Shown here piece after piece: positions 54,970-63,665 of a DNA stretch of 64,000 nt (position 1 is its first letter; the number at the start of each line of letters is the position of its first letter). The position numbers and the translations under genes were made by a program. Origin of the DNA: Cellvibrio sp. KY-YJ-3 (GTDB lineage Bacteria > Pseudomonadota > Gammaproteobacteria > Pseudomonadales > Cellvibrionaceae); NCBI RefSeq assembly GCF_008806955.1, contig NZ_CP031727.1:2060001-2124000 (forward strand), given 5' to 3'. The notes below the pieces were generated by a model. The model searched no databases. It saw only the letters and a list, made by a program, of their open reading frames with translations, and was not told the origin of the DNA.

Positions 54970-57438
54970 TTATTGGCTAAAGCCGTTTCCCTGCACAAAC
55001 TCCTTGGCAAAAATAATATCGTTTTGCAGGTGGAAACCTTCGTCCGGTGGCTGGATAAAAAATCCTTCAAATAACCGCACCCCTTGTAGCCACAAACTGG
55101 ACAGGTTGCGTGAGTTTTCAATTTGTGTCGCGATGACCTTGACCCCGCGTTGGGTTGCCGTGCTGACCAGGCTTTCCAGAAGTGCCGGATTTGTCCCGGT
55201 ATTCGACAACTTGGGGCACAGACGCAAATAGTCCAGCGGCAGTTGGTCGATTATCTCCACAATACCGGGGTTTTCACCCGCCCGGGTGAGGCAAATACCG
55301 CACTGTATATCATGCAGCGCCCGCGCAATTTCGCGGGTTTGATGCAGGTGATTGAGCACCCAGTTTTCCTCAAGCATAAATACCAGGCGCTCGCTGCCGC
55401 GCAGGCGGGAGGAGCGCAGCACATTGGCGGCAAAAGAAAAGAAGGTGCTTTGTTGCAGCGTGTCTTCGGCCAAATGGATAAACAGAGTGGCCTGCTCACG
55501 GGTGGCGCTGTTATTGGCGATAGCGCTCACCGCTTGTTGCAATACCCAGCGATCCAATTCAATACGCTGTGACGGTTTATTGATCCGGCTGAGAAATTGT
55601 TTAGCGGCGATGGGTTCGCCGTCTTCACCCTGTAAGCGCAGCAATACCGAGAAGTGCTCTATGCGCGCATCTTCCAGGCTAATGATGGGCTGGAAGGCGA
55701 GGGACAAATCGCGGCTGAAGACGATTTGGGAAAAGTCCGGCTCGACTTTGGTGAGTACCGGAATAGTCACAATATCGACAGTGTCTGCTGTTGGCGCATG
55801 GTTGGGTTTGGGAGCCAGGCTGGCCTCAAATGCTTGTTCCGCACACAAGAGTGCCTGATTGGCTGTGCCCAGGTTGGCGGTTAAGAGGGCGATACCGGTG
55901 TTTACCGTCAGGGATATTGCCTGCTCGTGGGCCAGGTATGTACGTGCGGCCAAATGGCGCCGCAATTGTTCGCAACGTTGGCGGTGAAATTCGGCACTGC
56001 GTTTACCGGCTAATACGCAAGTCACCATGTTGGATAAATCGATCCACTGTTCGTCGCTGCCAATGGCATCATCCAGATGGCGGCAGAACTGGTCGTGTAG
56101 TTTGATCAGCTCCACCATGCCTAATTGCTGGCTCAATTCACTGAGATTATCGACACTAATATAGTAGAGCGCGCTGGTGTGTTGCCCTTGTGCACCGCTA
56201 TTTATTTCGTCTTCCAGCACTGAAAAAAAGTAACTGCGATTAACCTTTTGTGGCAATTGGGTGTGGCGCGTCACCCGTGCAACCCGGCTTTTGAGGACTG
56301 AGGTTTGGTTGAGTGCCTGTTCGCAAATACCAATCAGTTCAGTCGCTTCAAAGGGTTTGGTGAGTACAGCGTTAACTCCCAGTGCTTTGATAGTGTTGTG
56401 CAGCTTGGTATCGGTATCGGCAGTGACAAATACGATGGGCAAGAGCAAAAAACGTGGATCCTGACGCAAGAGTACGGCCAGCTCCATGCCGTTGATGTCG
56501 GGCATGTGCATATCCAGGATCACCAGGTCCGGGTTGAACTGCGCCGCTTGTTGCAAGCTATGCAATGGCTGCTTGACGCTAATGACCTCCATACCGGCAT
56601 AGCGCAGAATCTCACTTTCCAGTGCAGCCATGTCGGGGTCGTCGTCCACTACCATCACTTTATAGGTGCGATTGTGCTGGGTAATGATTTGCAGCAGCCG
56701 CTCGATCAGCAGGCCCATATCCAATGGTTTGATTAAATAGTCGCTGCTACCGGCGCGCAAGGCGCGCAGTTTGGCGTTGACATCGGTGCGCCCGGACAAG
56801 AGCACAATCGGAGTGGTAGGTGGAGCCAATGCTTTGATCTGATGGAGGCTGCCCAGCGCTTGCAGTCCGGCGCGCTCAAAATCGGGGTCCATCAAAATTG
56901 CATCGGGTGATTCTTCGTACAGCCGCTGCATACACTGTTGCACGGTTTCAAAGTATTCAACGCTAAACCCCACACGGCGCAAATAAGCACTACACATCGC
57001 CGCGAGGGTGCGATCCGGGTCGATTAAAAACAACACCTTGCCTTCCGCATCCGGGTAGGCCTGTTTCTCAATGGGAGCGGGTAAGTTGTCTTTTGTGGTA
57101 ATGCCTTGGGCCGTTGCCATCATCACTTGGCTCAGGCGTTTGACGTGCTCTTCCAGCTGGGTATATTCCTGCCCACCAAAGCTGCGTCCCAACTCCTGCA
57201 GTTCGTTTAAGAAGTTTTCCAATTGGCTCGCGCTGGCGCGCAGCTCTGGCAAGCCGTAGCTGGCACCGGCCTCGTTTTGCTTCTGCACAAACTGCTGCAG
57301 GGCGGCAAAACCCTGTGCGCTCCAGTTTAAGTGGCGCAGGTAACCCCAGATGTTTTCCAAATGCCGCGCACGTTCTGGCAGGCTGGTAATAAAACGCTGG
57401 CGCAGGGCTTCAAGCTGTTTACGAAATTCTTGCGTCAT
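54970..57438 (-). CDS. Multidomain response regulator: HPt-like, REC, REC, degenerate GGDEF, degenerate EAL
   Basis: An 822-residue cytoplasmic signalling protein. Residues 1-115 are helical and HPt-like but the expected phospho-histidine is absent (LPELRASASQLENFL). About 148-265 is a first receiver (FLIDPDRTLAAM; ILMDPD), about 278-395 a second with full acidic pocket (MVVDDDPDMAAL; VILDMHMPDINGME). About 410-560 resembles GGDEF without a GGDEF motif. About 575-815 is an EAL fold lacking catalytic residues: HFSVLLRL replaces ExLxR, CGICLTRAG replaces DDFGTGYS, and IATQIENS replaces VAEGVE. It is probably a c-di-GMP or protein-binding adaptor driven by phosphorylation, like FimX, rather than an enzyme. 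Confidence 0.88.
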   Translation of the reverse strand: MTQEFRKQLEALRQRFITSLPERARHLENIWGYLRHLNWSAQGFAALQQFVQKQNEAGASYGLPELRASASQLENFLNELQELGRSFGGQEYTQLEEHVKRLSQVMMATAQGITTKDNLPAPIEKQAYPDAEGKVLFLIDPDRTLAAMCSAYLRRVGFSVEYFETVQQCMQRLYEESPDAILMDPDFERAGLQALGSLHQIKALAPPTTPIVLLSGRTDVNAKLRALRAGSSDYLIKPLDMGLLIERLLQIITQHNRTYKVMVVDDDPDMAALESEILRYAGMEVISVKQPLHSLQQAAQFNPDLVILDMHMPDINGMELAVLLRQDPRFLLLPIVFVTADTDTKLHNTIKALGVNAVLTKPFEATELIGICEQALNQTSVLKSRVARVTRHTQLPQKVNRSYFFSVLEDEINSGAQGQHTSALYYISVDNLSELSQQLGMVELIKLHDQFCRHLDDAIGSDEQWIDLSNMVTCVLAGKRSAEFHRQRCEQLRRHLAARTYLAHEQAISLTVNTGIALLTANLGTANQALLCAEQAFEASLAPKPNHAPTADTVDIVTIPVLTKVEPDFSQIVFSRDLSLAFQPIISLEDARIEHFSVLLRLQGEDGEPIAAKQFLSRINKPSQRIELDRWVLQQAVSAIANNSATREQATLFIHLAEDTLQQSTFFSFAANVLRSSRLRGSERLVFMLEENWVLNHLHQTREIARALHDIQCGICLTRAGENPGIVEIIDQLPLDYLRLCPKLSNTGTNPALLESLVSTATQRGVKVIATQIENSRNLSSLWLQGVRLFEGFFIQPPDEGFHLQNDIIFAKEFVQGNGFSQ

Positions 57439-57632: not shown

Positions 57633-59687
57633 ATGTCTAATCGATTCAACCGTTTTGCCCCTCGTGTTACCGGCCTCTGCCTTATGTCATCCACAATCCT
57701 GATGACGCTACCGCTTGCAGTTCAGGCGCAACAAGTGCTGGAGACGCTGGTGGTTAGCGGCGAGCGCCCGGCGTCGGTTTTGTCATCCCAAGTGATGCTA
57801 AAAAACGCCGGCGATTTCCCGCCCGGTGCGCGTCTTGATCCCGCTGAACTGCTGCAAACCCTGCCCGGGGTTCAGGTGGATTCACGCAGCAATTACGCAC
57901 AGGACACACGCATCAGTCTGCGTGGTTTTGGCGCCCGCTCGGCGTTTGGGGTGCGCGGTATAGATCTACAGGTGGATGGCATTCCCATGTCCACCCCCGA
58001 TGGGCAGGGGCAACTTTCCAGCGTCATGCTCGATAACATCGACAGCGTGCAAGTGCTGCGTGGCCCTATCGCCGTGCTTTATGGCAATGGCGCTGGTGGG
58101 GTGATTGCCCTGCAAACCGCCGCGCCCGTGGCAAATCAGGTGAATTTAGGCGTGATGGGCGGCGACCCTGGGTTACAGCGCCAAACGGTGCAAGGCGATT
58201 GGCGGCAAGGGGCGATGGCGGCGCGGGTGCAGTTGGCGAATACCGAGGTGGATGGCGAGCGCCCGCATTCAAGTGCGGAGCGCCAGCAGGGGGCGGCCCA
58301 GTTTTACTACACCACCAGCAATCAGCTGGACATCACCCTGAAACACGAGCGCAGCCATGACCCGCTGCTGCAAGACCCGCTCTCGCTGCGACCGGAAGAG
58401 TGGCGCGCTAACCCGCGTCAGACCAATCAGCTCGCCGAAGACTTTAATACACGCAAATCCGTCGATCATGAGCAGACCTCTCTTAGCTTGCGCGACAGTG
58501 AGGGTTCAACCCGCTGGCAAACCTCGTTCTGGCACGGCGAGCGCGCCATCACCCAATACCTGGGTTTTAGCGGTGAGGGGATTTCTGGCAGCGGTGGGGT
58601 CGTGGATTTAGTGCGCGATTTCGCCGGTGCCAGCGCGAATATCACCCAAAGTTTTAACCTGCTGAATATGCCCGCCGATATGAGTGTTGGTATCGAACTG
58701 GCGCAAACGGAAGATCGCCGGCGCGGATTTGTAAACAATAACGGCATTGCGGGCGATTTGCGTCGCAATGAATTGGGCAAGGTGGATAGCCGCGATATTT
58801 ATGCGCTGCTGCAATTAACGCCGACAGCGGATTTGTCGTTCTACACCGGTGTGCGTCAAAGCCGGTTGGATATGGAAGTGGACGATTATTTTGTGGTTAC
58901 CGGTAACCCCGATGACAGCGGCACGCGTGACTATCGTGAAAACGCCTATGCGTTTGGCGCGAATTATCAGCTCAGTGACCAGTGGGGGTTATTTGCCAGC
59001 CGTGGGCGCGGTTACGAAACACCTACACTCACCGAGATGGCTTATCGCCGCGTGGGCAGCGGGTTAAATATCGCCTTGGAAGCCGCGCTGAATAATCAGC
59101 AGGAATGGGGTATTCATTATCGCCCCCTGGCTGGTGCCGAATTAAGCGTCACCCAGTTTATGATCGACAGCAAAAACGAATTAGTGGTGGATCAGTCGGT
59201 CAGCGGTCGCACCAGCTACCGCAATGCGGCGGCGACTGAGCGCGAAGGTGTGGAAGTCTTAGGTCGCTACAGTGTTAACGATCAATGGCGCTTGCAAGCC
59301 AGCGCACAATTTATTGATGCGATTTATTCTGCGGGTGAATTGGATGGCAACCAATTACCCGGTGTAGCGCGCGAGCAATATCAACTCGGTTTACAATGGT
59401 TGCCCTTCGGCAGCGATGCGTTGCAATTAGGCGCCAGCCTGCAACAGCGCACGCGGGTATTTAGCGCCGATGATAATGCCGTGTCTGCACCGGGTTATCG
59501 CACCTTTGATGTGAGTGCCCAGGGCGATGTGGTAATTAATCAACTGCGTGTTGGTTGGTGGTTAAAAGTCGCAAATGTGAGCGATGAAAATTACGTTGGC
59601 TCAGTGGTAGTGAATCAAGCCAATGGTCGCGCATTTGAGCCAGCGCCGGGGCGTAACATGACGGCCGGAATGAACATAGTGTTTTAA
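57633..59687 (+). CDS. TonB-dependent outer-membrane receptor, siderophore type
   Basis: Outer-membrane importer, probably for a ferric siderophore or similar iron complex. ATG 57633 gives a signal peptide ending LPLAVQA, then a TonB-box-like ETLVVSG. The plug (about 45-165) has LDPAELLQTLPGVQVDSR, DTRISLRGFGARSAFGVRG, VDGIPMSTPDGQGQ and VQVLRGPIAVLYGNGAGGVI; the rest is the 22-strand barrel ending in GMNIVF. An upstream ATG at 57543 is possible but gives a poor signal. No Fur box was seen. It heads a tight run with two oxygenase-like genes and hrpB. Confidence 0.92.
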   Translation: MSNRFNRFAPRVTGLCLMSSTILMTLPLAVQAQQVLETLVVSGERPASVLSSQVMLKNAGDFPPGARLDPAELLQTLPGVQVDSRSNYAQDTRISLRGFGARSAFGVRGIDLQVDGIPMSTPDGQGQLSSVMLDNIDSVQVLRGPIAVLYGNGAGGVIALQTAAPVANQVNLGVMGGDPGLQRQTVQGDWRQGAMAARVQLANTEVDGERPHSSAERQQGAAQFYYTTSNQLDITLKHERSHDPLLQDPLSLRPEEWRANPRQTNQLAEDFNTRKSVDHEQTSLSLRDSEGSTRWQTSFWHGERAITQYLGFSGEGISGSGGVVDLVRDFAGASANITQSFNLLNMPADMSVGIELAQTEDRRRGFVNNNGIAGDLRRNELGKVDSRDIYALLQLTPTADLSFYTGVRQSRLDMEVDDYFVVTGNPDDSGTRDYRENAYAFGANYQLSDQWGLFASRGRGYETPTLTEMAYRRVGSGLNIALEAALNNQQEWGIHYRPLAGAELSVTQFMIDSKNELVVDQSVSGRTSYRNAAATEREGVEVLGRYSVNDQWRLQASAQFIDAIYSAGELDGNQLPGVAREQYQLGLQWLPFGSDALQLGASLQQRTRVFSADDNAVSAPGYRTFDVSAQGDVVINQLRVGWWLKVANVSDENYVGSVVVNQANGRAFEPAPGRNMTAGMNIVF

Positions 59688-59721
59688 TAATAGCCATTAG
59701 GTTTCAATAATAGAGAGCAGC

Positions 59722-60441
59722 ATGCAACAGCAGAGTTCACGGCCATTGGTTCCATTGCATAGCGATTTTAAGTATCGGGTTGATTACGTTGGCCTTGAAC
59801 GTCAACCGGTATTGGTCATTGATAATTTTTTGGTTCATGCTGAAACCCTGGTTGAATTTGCGCAGCAGCAAGGGCAATTTAATAATGCCGATGCTCATTA
59901 CCCCGGTGTTCGTCTGCCTGCTCCGGAACTTTATTTGTATTCCTTTCAACGGCACCTGCATCGATTAGTGAGTGACACTTTTGGAATGCGTGACGAGTGG
60001 GTTACTGGCGTAAAAGCAGATTTTTCCATGGTCGTCACGCCGCCTGCCGAGTTGCGCCCGGCGCAGTGTTTACCACACTTTGATTCAACCAATGGCCGTG
60101 AATTGGCGGCAGTACATTATTTGTGTGACAGTAAACAGGGCGGCACTTCGCTCTATCGTCATCGCTCAACAAATTATGAAACTATCGATGCTGAGCGCAA
60201 GCCAATCTATCGCCGCAGTTTGCAACAAGAACTGCCGGATCATTTGGTGCCGCGTAGGTACATGAATGGTAGCGATAATTTTTTTGAACAAATTGCCAGT
60301 TACGAAGCACGTTTCAATCGCCTTATTATTTATCGCTGCAATAATTTGCACTCCGGCAATATCGCGCCGGATTTTACTTTTGACCCCAGTCCGCGCACTG
60401 GCCGGTTAACATTAAATACTTTTATCTATGCGCGCGCGTAA
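59722..60441 (+). CDS. Putative Fe(II)/2-oxoglutarate oxygenase-like protein (DUF6445-like), copy 1
   Basis: A 239-residue cytoplasmic protein of a family I associate with DUF6445. It shows the order expected of the double-stranded beta-helix oxygenases: His119-x-Asp121 (CLPHFDST), distal His210 (NNLHSGNIA) and a basic residue in RTGRLTLN (Arg228). Other family stretches are PVLVIDNFL, HYPGVRLPAPELY and HYLCDSKQGGTSLYRHR. GAGAG precedes the ATG. It starts 34 bases after the TonB receptor gene. Catalysis is inferred from motif order only. Iron-regulated siderophore receptors in Pseudomonas (piuA) also sit beside an unrelated 2-oxoglutarate oxygenase gene (piuC), a useful analogy. Confidence 0.75.
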   Translation: MQQQSSRPLVPLHSDFKYRVDYVGLERQPVLVIDNFLVHAETLVEFAQQQGQFNNADAHYPGVRLPAPELYLYSFQRHLHRLVSDTFGMRDEWVTGVKADFSMVVTPPAELRPAQCLPHFDSTNGRELAAVHYLCDSKQGGTSLYRHRSTNYETIDAERKPIYRRSLQQELPDHLVPRRYMNGSDNFFEQIASYEARFNRLIIYRCNNLHSGNIAPDFTFDPSPRTGRLTLNTFIYARA

Positions 60442-60476
60442 ACTGAGTCAAATTGGATTTGGTAGATGGGGGCTTT

Positions 60477-61214
60477 GTGATTAATCCACTAAACGATACC
60501 GCGACCGAAAGGTTGCCCCAGCTGCATAAACACCAGCAGTTTAGTTTTCGCGTTGACTATATCGGCGATGAACGTCAGCCGGTATTAGTGATAGATAATT
60601 TTCTCGCCAATGCTGAACAGCTTATTGATTACTGCGCGCAGCACAGTAAGTTTAATACTGCAGATTTATCTTACCCCGGTGTGCGCATGCCTGCGCCCAG
60701 CACTTATCTGCGCGCTATGTTGCGCGATTTAGGTGAAATTATTTATTCAACCTTTGCTATAAAATCCACCATGATTCAGGGTTTGCGCAGCGATTATTCA
60801 ATGGTGGTGACACCTCCGGCACAATTGCGCCCGCCACAATGTGTACCCCATGTGGATTCGACTGGTTTAAATAATCTCGCCTGCGTGCATTATTTGTGTG
60901 ATGAAACCATGGGCGGTACTTCTCTATATCGTCACCGTACCACCGGTTATCAAACAATCAGTGACGCGCGTAAGCAACTTTATTTGGTGGAATTGACGGC
61001 GCAATTGCAGCAGCGTGAATTACCCAAAGCTTATATCAATGGTTCAACCGATCTATTCGAACAGCTTGCCAGTTATGACGCCGGTTTTAATCGCCTGGTT
61101 ATGTATCGCAGTAATCACTTACATTCCGGCAATATCGCACCGACATTTAAGTTTGATCCCAATCCGCGCACCGGCAGGCTTACGCTAAATACCTTTGTGC
61201 ATTGTCAGGAGTAA
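60477..61214 (+). CDS. Putative Fe(II)/2-oxoglutarate oxygenase-like protein (DUF6445-like), copy 2
   Basis: A 245-residue paralogue of the preceding protein along its whole length (FRVDYIGDERQPVLVIDNFL; YPGVRMPAPSTYL; YRSNHLHSGNIAP). The metal-site order is retained: His125-x-Asp127 (CVPHVDST), His216 and Arg234 in RTGRLTLN. I chose GTG 60477, which aligns with the start of copy 1; TTG 60453 is an alternative. The copies are clearly diverged, so the duplication is not recent and each may have its own substrate. The hrpB start lies 3 bases after the stop, implying translational coupling. Confidence 0.75.
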   Translation: MINPLNDTATERLPQLHKHQQFSFRVDYIGDERQPVLVIDNFLANAEQLIDYCAQHSKFNTADLSYPGVRMPAPSTYLRAMLRDLGEIIYSTFAIKSTMIQGLRSDYSMVVTPPAQLRPPQCVPHVDSTGLNNLACVHYLCDETMGGTSLYRHRTTGYQTISDARKQLYLVELTAQLQQRELPKAYINGSTDLFEQLASYDAGFNRLVMYRSNHLHSGNIAPTFKFDPNPRTGRLTLNTFVHCQE

Positions 61215-61217
61215 TGC

Positions 61218-63665
61218 GTGAGCATTGAGTTAAATCCGCAGGCGAAAAACGCTGCCATTCATCTGCCTGAATTACCCTTAAGCGCACTGCGCAGTGAATT
61301 TGTCGCCGCACTTGCACACACGCCTTTGTTATTGGAAGCGGAGCCGGGCGCTGGGAAATCCACCCTCGCACCGCTGTGGGTTTTGCAACAAGCACCCGCA
61401 GGGCAACAAGTATGGTTGGTGCAGCCGCGGGTATTAGCCGCACAAGCGCTTGCCCAACGGCTCGCCCAGCTATTGGGTGAAACCCCGGGGCAACAAGTGG
61501 GTTATCAAGTGCCCTACGATTCGCGCATGAGTGCGGATACCCGTTTAGTATTAATGACCCCCGGTATTTTACTGCAGCATTTACTGCAAAACCCCACGCT
61601 CGATAATGTTGCCTGTGTGATGTTGGACGAGATTCATGAGCGCAGTGTCAATCAGGATATGGCGTGGGCATTTTTGCAAGAAGTGCAAATTCTGCGTGAG
61701 GATTTGCAGCTGGTACTAATGAGCGCAACACCAGACCCCGCATTGCAACAACAAATTCCCCAGCGAATTTTTGCGCCGGGTCGCTGCTTTCCGGTCACTG
61801 TGCAGCATCAACCAGCCAAACAAAATGCGCGTGGTTATCCGGAAAAAGTGGATGAACAATTACTGCGTGCCTTGCAGTCTTATCCTGCATGGCAAGCCAG
61901 CTGTTGTCTGGTGTTTTTACCGGGTTGGCGTGAAATAGAAGATTGCGCGCAATTGCTCGCCAGCTATTTTCCCGCACATAAAGTCTGTCGCTTACACAGC
62001 CGTGTTAACGCCGCCGAGCAATTAATGGCGCTCGACCCAGCGCAGGGCCCACGCATTATTTTGGCGACCAATATTGCTGAAACTTCATTGACGATTGCCG
62101 ATGTCACACTGGTGATTGATTCGGGTTTGGCGCGCCGCGCTGATTACGAACAGCGCACTGGCGTTACTCGCTTACGCAACACACGCATCAGCATGGCCAG
62201 CGCCGAACAGCGGCGCGGTCGTGCGGGGCGCGTGCAAGCCGGCCACTGTATTCGTCTCTGGTCGCAAGACCAGCCGCTCGCCGCTGCGGATTTACCGGAA
62301 ATTCGCGCGACGGACTACCTTCCGCTGATGTTGCGCATCGCCCACTGGGGCAGCCCCGCCCAATCCTTACCTTGGCTTGAAGCACCGAATGCGCTGGCAT
62401 TAGCTTTTGCGCAGCAACAATTGCAAAAAATGCAGCTGCTGGATGAACAGGGCGTAATTACCCCTGCGGGTGAAAAAGTCAGCGCGCTGGGTACTCACCC
62501 GCGCATTGCCGCGTTTTTGTTGCTGCATAAAAATGTGATCGCCACTTCATCTCTATTGCTCGCTTTGGCGTTACATTTTGAATTGGCGGGCGATCAGGAT
62601 CTGGAGCAGTGGCTTGCAGATGCGGCGCAAGAATTAAAACGCAATCACCACTGGCAGCGACAACAAAAACGTTGGCTTTCGGTATTGGCGCTGCAGGAAG
62701 AAAATGCCGCAATCGATTCGTTATTGATTGCGCGGGCGTTCAGTGATCGTATCGGTTTTAAACAGGAGTCTGGCCGCTACCGTTTAAATTCGGGCATGAG
62801 TGTGGAGCCGCAGGGAAATTTGGAATCCAATTGGGCGGTGTTTTTACTCATCAATACCAAGCCCAAAAGTCACTCGGGTATTGGTCTCGCCTTATCACTT
62901 GCGCAGGCGCAACAGCGCGAGTTAAGTCAGTTGAACCAAAGCATGGTTTTCAAACAGCAGCGCTGGCAAGAGCACAGCTGTTGGACCATGGGCGGTGTGG
63001 TTATCGACGAGCAGTTTCAACCCATTGACTCTACAGAGTTGAGCGCAAAATTGGTGGCCCATGTTCAACAGCTTGCGCGCGAAAAAAGTTTAGCGCAACT
63101 ATCATGGAGTGACAGCGCACGCGCTTTACTCGAACGTGCACGATTATTAAATACACATCAGTTGTTGGATTGTCTCGCACTGGACGATGCGTCACTTATC
63201 GAGAAGATGCCGCAGTGGCTATCACCCTTTTTGAATGAAAGCACACAACTGGAACGCTTGCCGCTGCGTGAAGCGTTGGAATTTTATTTGGGATATGAAC
63301 AGTGCCAAAAAATTGCGCAGCTGTTGCCCGATAAAATTACTTTACCCAGCGGGCGCAGTGTAACTATTGAGTTTACCAGTGAAGGCAGCGCGCAAATCTC
63401 GGCCAAGTTGCAGGAGTTTTTTGGCTGCGAACAGTTGCAACTGGGTAATGGCAAAATCCCGCTAAAAATCCATTTGCTTTCACCCAATGGCAGCCCGCTC
63501 GCCATTACCACTAATTTGCAAACCTTTTGGCAGCAGGCCTACCCCGAGGTACGCAAAGAAATGCGCGGCCGCTACCCACGCCACCCCTGGCCGGAAAATC
63601 CGCTGGAACACGAGGCGACTGCACTAACCAAGCGAAAATTAGCGCAGCAGCAAGTGCCGCAATAA
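61218..63665 (+). CDS. hrpB: ATP-dependent DExH-box helicase HrpB
   Basis: An 815-residue helicase of the HrpB family. Walker A is EAEPGAGKSTLAP, motif II MLDEIHERSVNQD (DEIH), motif III MSATPD, and motif VI QRRGRAGRVQAG; the C-terminal third carries the HrpB-specific end with RKEMRGRYPRHPWPENP. RNA is the expected substrate, role poorly defined. The GTG start at 61218 with AGGAG overlapping the previous stop shows coupling to the oxygenase genes. Confidence 0.95.
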   Translation: MSIELNPQAKNAAIHLPELPLSALRSEFVAALAHTPLLLEAEPGAGKSTLAPLWVLQQAPAGQQVWLVQPRVLAAQALAQRLAQLLGETPGQQVGYQVPYDSRMSADTRLVLMTPGILLQHLLQNPTLDNVACVMLDEIHERSVNQDMAWAFLQEVQILREDLQLVLMSATPDPALQQQIPQRIFAPGRCFPVTVQHQPAKQNARGYPEKVDEQLLRALQSYPAWQASCCLVFLPGWREIEDCAQLLASYFPAHKVCRLHSRVNAAEQLMALDPAQGPRIILATNIAETSLTIADVTLVIDSGLARRADYEQRTGVTRLRNTRISMASAEQRRGRAGRVQAGHCIRLWSQDQPLAAADLPEIRATDYLPLMLRIAHWGSPAQSLPWLEAPNALALAFAQQQLQKMQLLDEQGVITPAGEKVSALGTHPRIAAFLLLHKNVIATSSLLLALALHFELAGDQDLEQWLADAAQELKRNHHWQRQQKRWLSVLALQEENAAIDSLLIARAFSDRIGFKQESGRYRLNSGMSVEPQGNLESNWAVFLLINTKPKSHSGIGLALSLAQAQQRELSQLNQSMVFKQQRWQEHSCWTMGGVVIDEQFQPIDSTELSAKLVAHVQQLAREKSLAQLSWSDSARALLERARLLNTHQLLDCLALDDASLIEKMPQWLSPFLNESTQLERLPLREALEFYLGYEQCQKIAQLLPDKITLPSGRSVTIEFTSEGSAQISAKLQEFFGCEQLQLGNGKIPLKIHLLSPNGSPLAITTNLQTFWQQAYPEVRKEMRGRYPRHPWPENPLEHEATALTKRKLAQQQVPQ

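What the first reader, a model, noticed from the sequence alone, without database searches (positions are those of the whole stretch)
57633..63665. Operon of a TonB receptor, two tandem oxygenase-like paralogues and hrpB
Seen: four same-strand genes with gaps of 34, 35 and 3 bases. The two middle proteins share full-length similarity and each keeps HxD, a distal His and an RTGRLTLN segment in the order of Fe(II)/2-oxoglutarate oxygenases (His119/Asp121/His210/Arg228 and His125/Asp127/His216/Arg234). Known: piuA-piuC in Pseudomonas pairs a siderophore receptor with an oxygenase of another family. Inference: the twin proteins modify the imported ligand or a partner, and this is a recurrent receptor-oxygenase system whose function is undescribed.
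Basis: partly seen in the sequence, partly recalled or inferred. Interest (0 to 1): 0.75.

Follow-up and report, generated by a model that had tools for sequence, protein, structure and literature searches.

The report
PQQ receptor operon with twin oxygenases
In a Cellvibrio bacterium, an outer-membrane gate that probably imports the enzyme cofactor PQQ is encoded in one gene row with two copies of a little-studied predicted iron enzyme, whose relatives often sit beside predicted halogen-adding enzymes and nutrient gates, so the pair may chemically finish a protein of the import system.

Summary

The receptor is in 21 of 21 Cellvibrio genomes. hrpB is directly next in 13; DUF6445 lies between them in 5. 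DUF6445's commonest partner is a FAD 'tryptophan halogenase' (57 of 80 loci; one complete fusion protein), in the own genome with TIGR01782 receptors (4 of 4 sister loci). The window locus is the outlier, without halogenase. Best reading: cytoplasmic oxygenases that hydroxylate a protein of the receptor pathway rather than PQQ. The oxygenase assignment is well supported; the substrate is inferred, and no receptor column follows the presence of DUF6445. hrpB is a neighbour, not a part.

The parts
57633..59687 (+). TonB-dependent receptor of PqqU type (684 aa; plug and beta-barrel domains); frame open from 57543
   Evidence: Pfam Plug and barrel; NCBIfam best hit PqqU 430.7 bits, below its cut-off of 1200; PDB hits YncD/PqqU 6v81 E 1.7e-98 and 9c4o; PqqU signature residues kept
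59722..60441 (+). DUF6445-a, predicted Fe(II)/2-oxoglutarate oxygenase (239 aa; H119, D121, H210, R228)
60477..61214 (+). DUF6445-b, paralogue (245 aa from GTG; 253 aa from TTG 60453; H125, D127, H216, R234); not modelled itself
   Evidence: PF20043 E 2.9e-77; 56% identical to a; copy in G007 80-81% identical, dN/dS 0.10
61218..63665 (+). hrpB, DEAH-box helicase: neighbour, judged not part of the system
   Evidence: TIGR01970 595 bits, over cut-off; directly beside the receptor without DUF6445 in 13 of 21 Cellvibrio genomes

Best explanation
The locus is a PqqU-type outer-membrane receptor gene, probably for import of the cofactor PQQ, into whose row with hrpB two genes for cytoplasmic DUF6445 Fe(II)/2-oxoglutarate oxygenases have been placed. 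Step 1 (well supported): DUF6445 is a 2OG-oxygenase family. Step 2 (supported): the receptor is a PQQ importer in a genus that appears to use but not make PQQ. Step 3 (inferred): the oxygenases hydroxylate a protein of the receptor pathway, most simply the unfolded receptor precursor in the cytoplasm before export, and so tune the receptor; in sister loci the same kind of enzyme sits with a FAD halogenase, and in part with SapC and a Cupin_8/JmjC-like oxygenase, beside TIGR01782 receptors. The ligands seem to differ between loci (glycans by their neighbours, PQQ here) while a receptor gene recurs, hence a protein target is preferred over the ligand.
For: Fold and triad. PF20043 for both. PqqU signature: (20 of 20 Cellvibrio orthologues, the window's included, identical at 11 positions; G002, the 21st, left out because its gene is broken in the assembly). 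No pqqE over cut-off in 21 of 21 Cellvibrio genomes, some of them incomplete (pqqE was the only biosynthesis gene searched); PF07995, a family of PQQ-type sugar dehydrogenases (recalled), in the own genome at 451 bits. Receptor link: 5 of 5 own DUF6445 sites within 5.2 kb of a receptor plug (the distance was set by the data); 55 of 77 other DUF6445 genes in loci of this family of bacteria have a receptor, 64 of 77 a halogenase, within 4 kb; 57 (halogenase) and 52 (receptor) of 80 in a second collection; halogenase-DUF6445 fusion. The six DUF6445 copies joined to PqqU are not one clade (AU p 0.012). Precedent: CciT function was reported to need the cytoplasmic oxygenase CciO (PMC12004947, passages).
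Confidence: 0.35

Rival explanations
1. The oxygenases act on the imported ligand or on a ligand made by the cell: they process a compound that the receptor takes up.
Against: The receptor carries the PQQ site, PQQ is used in the periplasm (recalled) and a and b show no signal peptide; species without DUF6445 in this row keep the same PQQ site; in several other loci the neighbours point to glycans (read by eye; 94-97, annotated), so a common ligand is hard to see.
Confidence: 0.15
2. The oxygenases make or tailor a small peptide or metabolite together with halogenases encoded elsewhere in the genome, and their place behind PqqU only gives them its expression control.
For: The own genome has about 30 halogenase-family sites (34 matches, some split; three sites weak); halogenase-DUF6445 fusion; fold matches include natural-product oxygenases.
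Against: 25 of 30 halogenase sites lie within 6 kb of a TIGR01782 receptor, not a usual biosynthetic context; reading the translations of the four sister loci by eye I saw no biosynthetic core gene (not searched by family). The nearest halogenase-family match to the window pair is weak and about 112 kb away, the nearest strong one about 250 kb (coordinates).
Confidence: 0.2
3. Hitch-hiking: DUF6445 genes move and duplicate often, and two landed in the PqqU-hrpB gap without any functional tie to PqqU.
For: Only 5 of 21 genomes have it there; copies there are not one clade; DUF6445 genes with mixed neighbours exist; in G012 two unrelated opposite-strand genes also sit in the gap.
Against: Same place and same strand in five species although the copies are not one clade, near-overlap with hrpB, purifying selection like the receptor's (one copy in one pair of species).
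Confidence: 0.3

Closest known systems
DUF6445, PF20043
   Same: Both proteins are full members (260.8 and 260 bits, cut-off 24)
   Different: Family has no stated function; here it is tandem, without halogenase, behind a PqqU-type receptor
CciT-CciO / PiuA-PiuC (Fiu-YbiX): TBDR with a neighbouring cytoplasmic 2OG oxygenase
   Same: Two-part layout: outer-membrane receptor plus cytoplasmic 2OG oxygenase in one row; PiuC shares the fold
   Different: Receptor is PqqU type, not Fiu/PiuA; oxygenases hit only PF20043; two copies; no iron link seen (none was tested)
TIGR01782 receptor + Trp_halogenase (PF04820) clusters, with SapC (PF07277), Cupin_8 (PF13621) and DUF6445 in part
   Same: Same oxygenase family; four such loci in the same genome, each with receptor, halogenase and DUF6445, two with SapC, one with Cupin_8
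   Different: Window locus has neither halogenase, SapC, Cupin_8 nor a TIGR01782 receptor
PqqU (YncD), PQQ transporter
   Same: Signature residues; alignment of residues 66-683 to 6v81 at E 1.7e-98
   Different: Below the NCBIfam equivalog cut-off; Q310 and N477 replaced by L and T
OGFOD1/Tpa1 prolyl hydroxylases of a ribosomal protein; EF-Tu prolyl hydroxylase
   Different: 11-16% identity; substrate of DUF6445 unknown

Membership tests
Fe(II)/2OG oxygenase superfamily | Double-stranded beta-helix fold | tested here: met
Fe(II)/2OG oxygenase superfamily | HxD...H metal triad and a distal Arg/Lys for 2OG, conserved | tested here: met
   H119, D121, H210 160 of 160; R228 159 of 160, one cut by contig end
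Fe(II)/2OG oxygenase superfamily | Triad clusters in space; binds metal and 2OG; turns over 2OG | not testable with these tools
DUF6445 (PF20043) | Score over the curated cut-off | tested here: met
   260.8 and 260 bits, cut-off 24
PqqU | Published signature Y/F/W99, R304, R365 | tested here: met
   F, R, R in the window and in 20 of 20 aligned Cellvibrio orthologues, window included
PqqU | NCBIfam NF041535 equivalog cut-off (1200 bits) | tested here: not met
   430.7 bits; 0 of 61 genomes of the bacterial family pass it, the control E. coli does
PqqU | Imports PQQ | not testable with these tools
   Indirect only: no pqqE over cut-off, PF07995 enzymes present
CciT-CciO / PiuA-PiuC pair | Receptor related to Fiu/PiuA | tested here: not met
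   Best family and PDB hits are PqqU/YncD
CciT-CciO / PiuA-PiuC pair | Oxygenase of the PiuC family | tested here: not met
   Only PF20043 in Pfam, nothing in NCBIfam
CciT-CciO / PiuA-PiuC pair | Fur control | not tested
   -
TIGR01782 receptor-halogenase clusters | FAD halogenase beside the receptor | tested here: not met
   Nearest halogenase-family match about 112 kb from the window pair, and weak
TIGR01782 receptor-halogenase clusters | Receptor over the TIGR01782 cut-off | tested here: not met
   Window receptor not among the 35 TIGR01782 receptors of the genome; nearest 248 kb

The most novel reading that the evidence does not exclude
DUF6445, together with peptide-acting FAD halogenases, SapC and Cupin_8 oxygenases, forms a cytoplasmic workshop that halogenates and hydroxylates TonB-dependent receptors before export, a form of outer-membrane protein modification that my paper searches did not turn up; the window pair would be its halogenase-free branch, acting on a cofactor receptor.
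Probability: 0.2. Interest if true: 0.88.

Novelty: new variant of a known kind. Interest (0 to 1): 0.52.

Why it matters
It turns an unnamed family (DUF6445) into a testable 2OG oxygenase family and shows that its commonest context is a receptor-linked enzyme set. In the own genome 25 of 30 halogenase sites lie within 6 kb of a TIGR01782 receptor, so the question of what these 'tryptophan halogenases' do, whose natural substrates are mostly unknown (recalled), becomes a question about receptor loci. The window locus is the simplest case: one receptor with a probable known ligand (PQQ), two oxygenases, no halogenase. The two CciT-CciO papers leave the role of the partner oxygenase open (passages), and a receptor with a known ligand is a cleaner place to ask.

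Tried and rejected
Siderophore receptor: set aside on the PqqU signature and the PDB/NCBIfam ranking. hrpB as part of the system: set aside. Recent tandem duplication of a and b: not supported; b is sister to the single G007 copy (81%), a is nearest to the G005 copy (57%). One ancestor for the six PqqU-linked DUF6445 copies: rejected at AU p 0.0119 (the group was named from gene order, but I had seen a first quick tree, in which three of the six rows bore a wrong label). The best tree needs 3 changes of that label, well-supported branches force 2; gains and losses cannot be told apart. DUF6445-specific columns in PqqU: none; random sets of five gave 0.0085 on average, so the test has little power. 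Sequence link to a solved structure: none that holds; the A1 profile gave mimivirus lysyl hydroxylase at E 0.82, the A2 profile nothing up to E 10. Pfam 2OG-FeII_Oxy_3 hits only 4 of 64 members, best E 0.0042. Promoters and terminators: 5 and 12 found, 6.1 and 10.5 expected, uninformative. Genome scan with the single window protein found no relative. TIGR03074 membrane dehydrogenase: none in the own genome. Papers: 'DUF6445' in 0; two searches gave 0; flavin-dependent halogenase with TonB-dependent receptor in 2 and tryptophan halogenase with TonB-dependent in 3, seen as listings only; others (7 papers; 25 of 279 listed; 20 of 42 listed) showed none on the link by title; in PMC5945002 (passages) 'TonB' does not occur; Blanvillain 2007 holds no 'halogenase'. 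Most subscription journals are not in that library. SapC fold: not obtained.

Full report
What is there. The four genes and their gaps are as described. The receptor starts best at 57633. The two middle proteins are 56% identical over 231 residues, and both belong to Pfam DUF6445 at 260.8 and 260 bits against a cut-off of 24. NCBIfam has no family for them.

The receptor. Its closest solved relatives are YncD/PqqU (6v81 E 1.7e-98; 9c4o). Munder et al. 2025 (PMC12124388; abstract, passages and sections 7 and 10 seen) define PqqU by Y/F/W99, R304 and R365. From the alignment the window receptor has F, R and R there, and also keeps Q84, Q121, K274, Q308, Y481 and R536; Q310 is L and N477 is T. 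The 20 aligned Cellvibrio orthologues, the window's included, have the same letters at these 11 positions (the 21st, G002, is broken in its assembly and was left out). No Cellvibrio genome of 21 has a PqqE over the cut-off, while one more distant genome among the 32 searched does; some of the 21 are incomplete, and other biosynthesis genes were not searched. The own genome has PF07995 sugar dehydrogenases (best 451 bits; PQQ use of this family is recalled) and no TIGR03074 membrane dehydrogenase. A PQQ user that does not make PQQ is what PqqU predicts. The NCBIfam equivalog cut-off is not met (430.7 of 1200 bits), nor by any of 61 genomes of the bacterial family examined, so I call the receptor PqqU-type.

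The neighbourhood in the genus. The receptor is found in 21 of 21 Cellvibrio genomes. From, hrpB is the next match with no room for a DUF6445 (332 bases or less) in 13 of 21; DUF6445 lies between them in 5 (G000, the window, with two; G005, G006, G007 and G012 with one each); in G016 and G018 the two are far apart; in G017 they are on different contigs. In G012 two opposite-strand genes, one a class 3 lipase, also sit in the gap. DUF6445 is thus an optional member of a receptor-hrpB row. A tree of 81 DUF6445 domains puts window b beside the G007 copy (81% identity) and window a nearest the G005 copy (57%); holding the six PqqU-linked copies together is rejected (AU p 0.0119). The twins do not look like a fresh duplication, and the pairing probably arose more than once, though gains and losses cannot be told apart (3 changes on the best tree, 2 forced by well-supported branches). 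DUF6445-b is under purifying selection of the same order as the receptor (one species pair).

The usual company of the family. The own genome has six DUF6445 genes at five sites. The other four sites carry a 954-1092 aa receptor of TIGR01782 (4 of 4 over cut-off) and a FAD halogenase; two have SapC and one Cupin_8 (PF04820, PF07277 and PF13621 checked for L009, SapC also for L007). Read by eye and not by family search, three of the four lie near carbohydrate genes (a cellulase-like gene in L007, GH3- and GH16-like genes in L008, amino-sugar genes in L010); L009 does not. In 77 DUF6445 genes of loci from this bacterial family, the window pair not counted, 64 have a halogenase and 55 a receptor within 4 kb (loci cut by contig ends are included). 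In 80 loci from a second collection, found by one sequence pattern and the best 80 of 422 relatives, 57 have a halogenase within 4 kb and 52 a receptor within 8 kb; of the 57 loci whose title or lineage does not contain 'Cellvibrio', 40 and 38 (some MAGs labelled only Gammaproteobacteria are Cellvibrio genomes and remain in that count). In two Cellvibrio genomes the two enzymes are one protein, halogenase first: G019 whole (741 aa) and G011 cut by the contig; the fusion flag was raised in none of the 80. Of five plasmid records, three have receptor, DUF6445 and 'tryptophan halogenase family protein' side by side, and two have DUF6445 in glycoside-hydrolase clusters, one of these with a receptor about 3 kb on. 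The 23 loci without a halogenase (one of them a PqqU locus, L168) have mixed neighbours: 41 of 101 listed neighbour frames, from the other 22 loci, were scanned and gave at most 3 members for any family shown, among them 3 plug domains (25 of 61 families shown).

Is the receptor link more than chance? In the own genome 62 plug domains were found; the 5 DUF6445 sites lie within 5.2 kb of one, and 13% of the genome does (five in a row about 4e-5, with the distance set by the data themselves). The 34 halogenase matches were merged by me to 30 sites, three of them weak; 25 of 30 lie within 6 kb of one of the 35 TIGR01782 receptors. Of the TIGR01782 receptors 19 of 35 have a halogenase within 6 kb, of the other 27 receptors 2 (extents of the latter approximated from the plug). 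The window locus is the one DUF6445 site with neither a halogenase (nearest match about 112 kb and weak, nearest strong one about 250 kb) nor a TIGR01782 receptor (nearest 248 kb).

How it most likely works. Shown or well supported: 2OG-oxygenase fold and residues; PqqU-type receptor; recurrent but not universal link to receptors. Inferred: both oxygenases stay in the cytoplasm, as neither shows a signal peptide; PQQ is used in the periplasm (recalled), so they would not meet it; ligands seem to differ between loci while a receptor gene recurs; so the target is more likely a protein of the receptor pathway, most simply the receptor precursor. Against it: no receptor column follows the presence of DUF6445, 13 of 21 species have the receptor-hrpB row without it, and DUF6445 genes without halogenase or receptor nearby exist. 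I put 0.93 on 2OG oxygenase, 0.85 on PQQ receptor, 0.6 on a functional tie and 0.35 on the whole statement.

Compared with what is known. The layout works like CciT-CciO and PiuA-PiuC, a receptor with a cytoplasmic 2OG oxygenase of open role. The two papers differ: PMC12004947 reports that CciT function strictly requires CciO and that CciT is still made without it, PMC12004943 that CciO is not needed for Fe or Cu transport and that CciT levels fall without it; the models in the passages seen concern the ligand, an inhibitor or iron supply. The window locus is not a member of that pair: other receptor type, other oxygenase family. It is a member of DUF6445. It is not a member of the TIGR01782-halogenase clusters. 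No paper in the library searched holds the word DUF6445, and the searches for halogenases with TonB-dependent receptors showed no work on the link (listings only, capped for 40 and 88).

Noticed in passing
own genome G000 (window = C1:2060001-2124000): About 30 Trp_halogenase-family sites (34 matches, three sites weak) in a 4.49 Mb genome; 25 of 30 within 6 kb of a TIGR01782 receptor. A large set for enzymes usually tied to natural products.
   Followed up: partly
L111:8381-10606 (-); L112:2-1954 (+): Halogenase-DUF6445 fusion proteins in two Cellvibrio genomes.
   Followed up: partly
L054, L067, L105, L111, L112: Loci with two or three halogenase-family genes in a row; in L054 and L067 one of them is divergent.
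   Followed up: no
L244-L263; phage hits H1-H4: Phage-contig relatives of DUF6445 (L244 37%, the others 23-30% identity; phage records 35% and 25%); PHROG family 1644 and one cyanophage record call them 'minor coat protein', though they match an oxygenase family.
   Followed up: no
G002:C100:2707-4672: The PqqU orthologue of G002 is split into two matches, one with a TAG inside, in that assembly; described only.
   Followed up: no
window 54970-57438 (-): Divergent neighbour: two response-regulator receivers, a GGDEF match just at its cut-off and an EAL domain in one protein.
   Followed up: no
L048:5867-7550 (-): In G012 a class 3 lipase and a small exported-looking protein lie between PqqU and DUF6445 on the other strand.
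   Followed up: no
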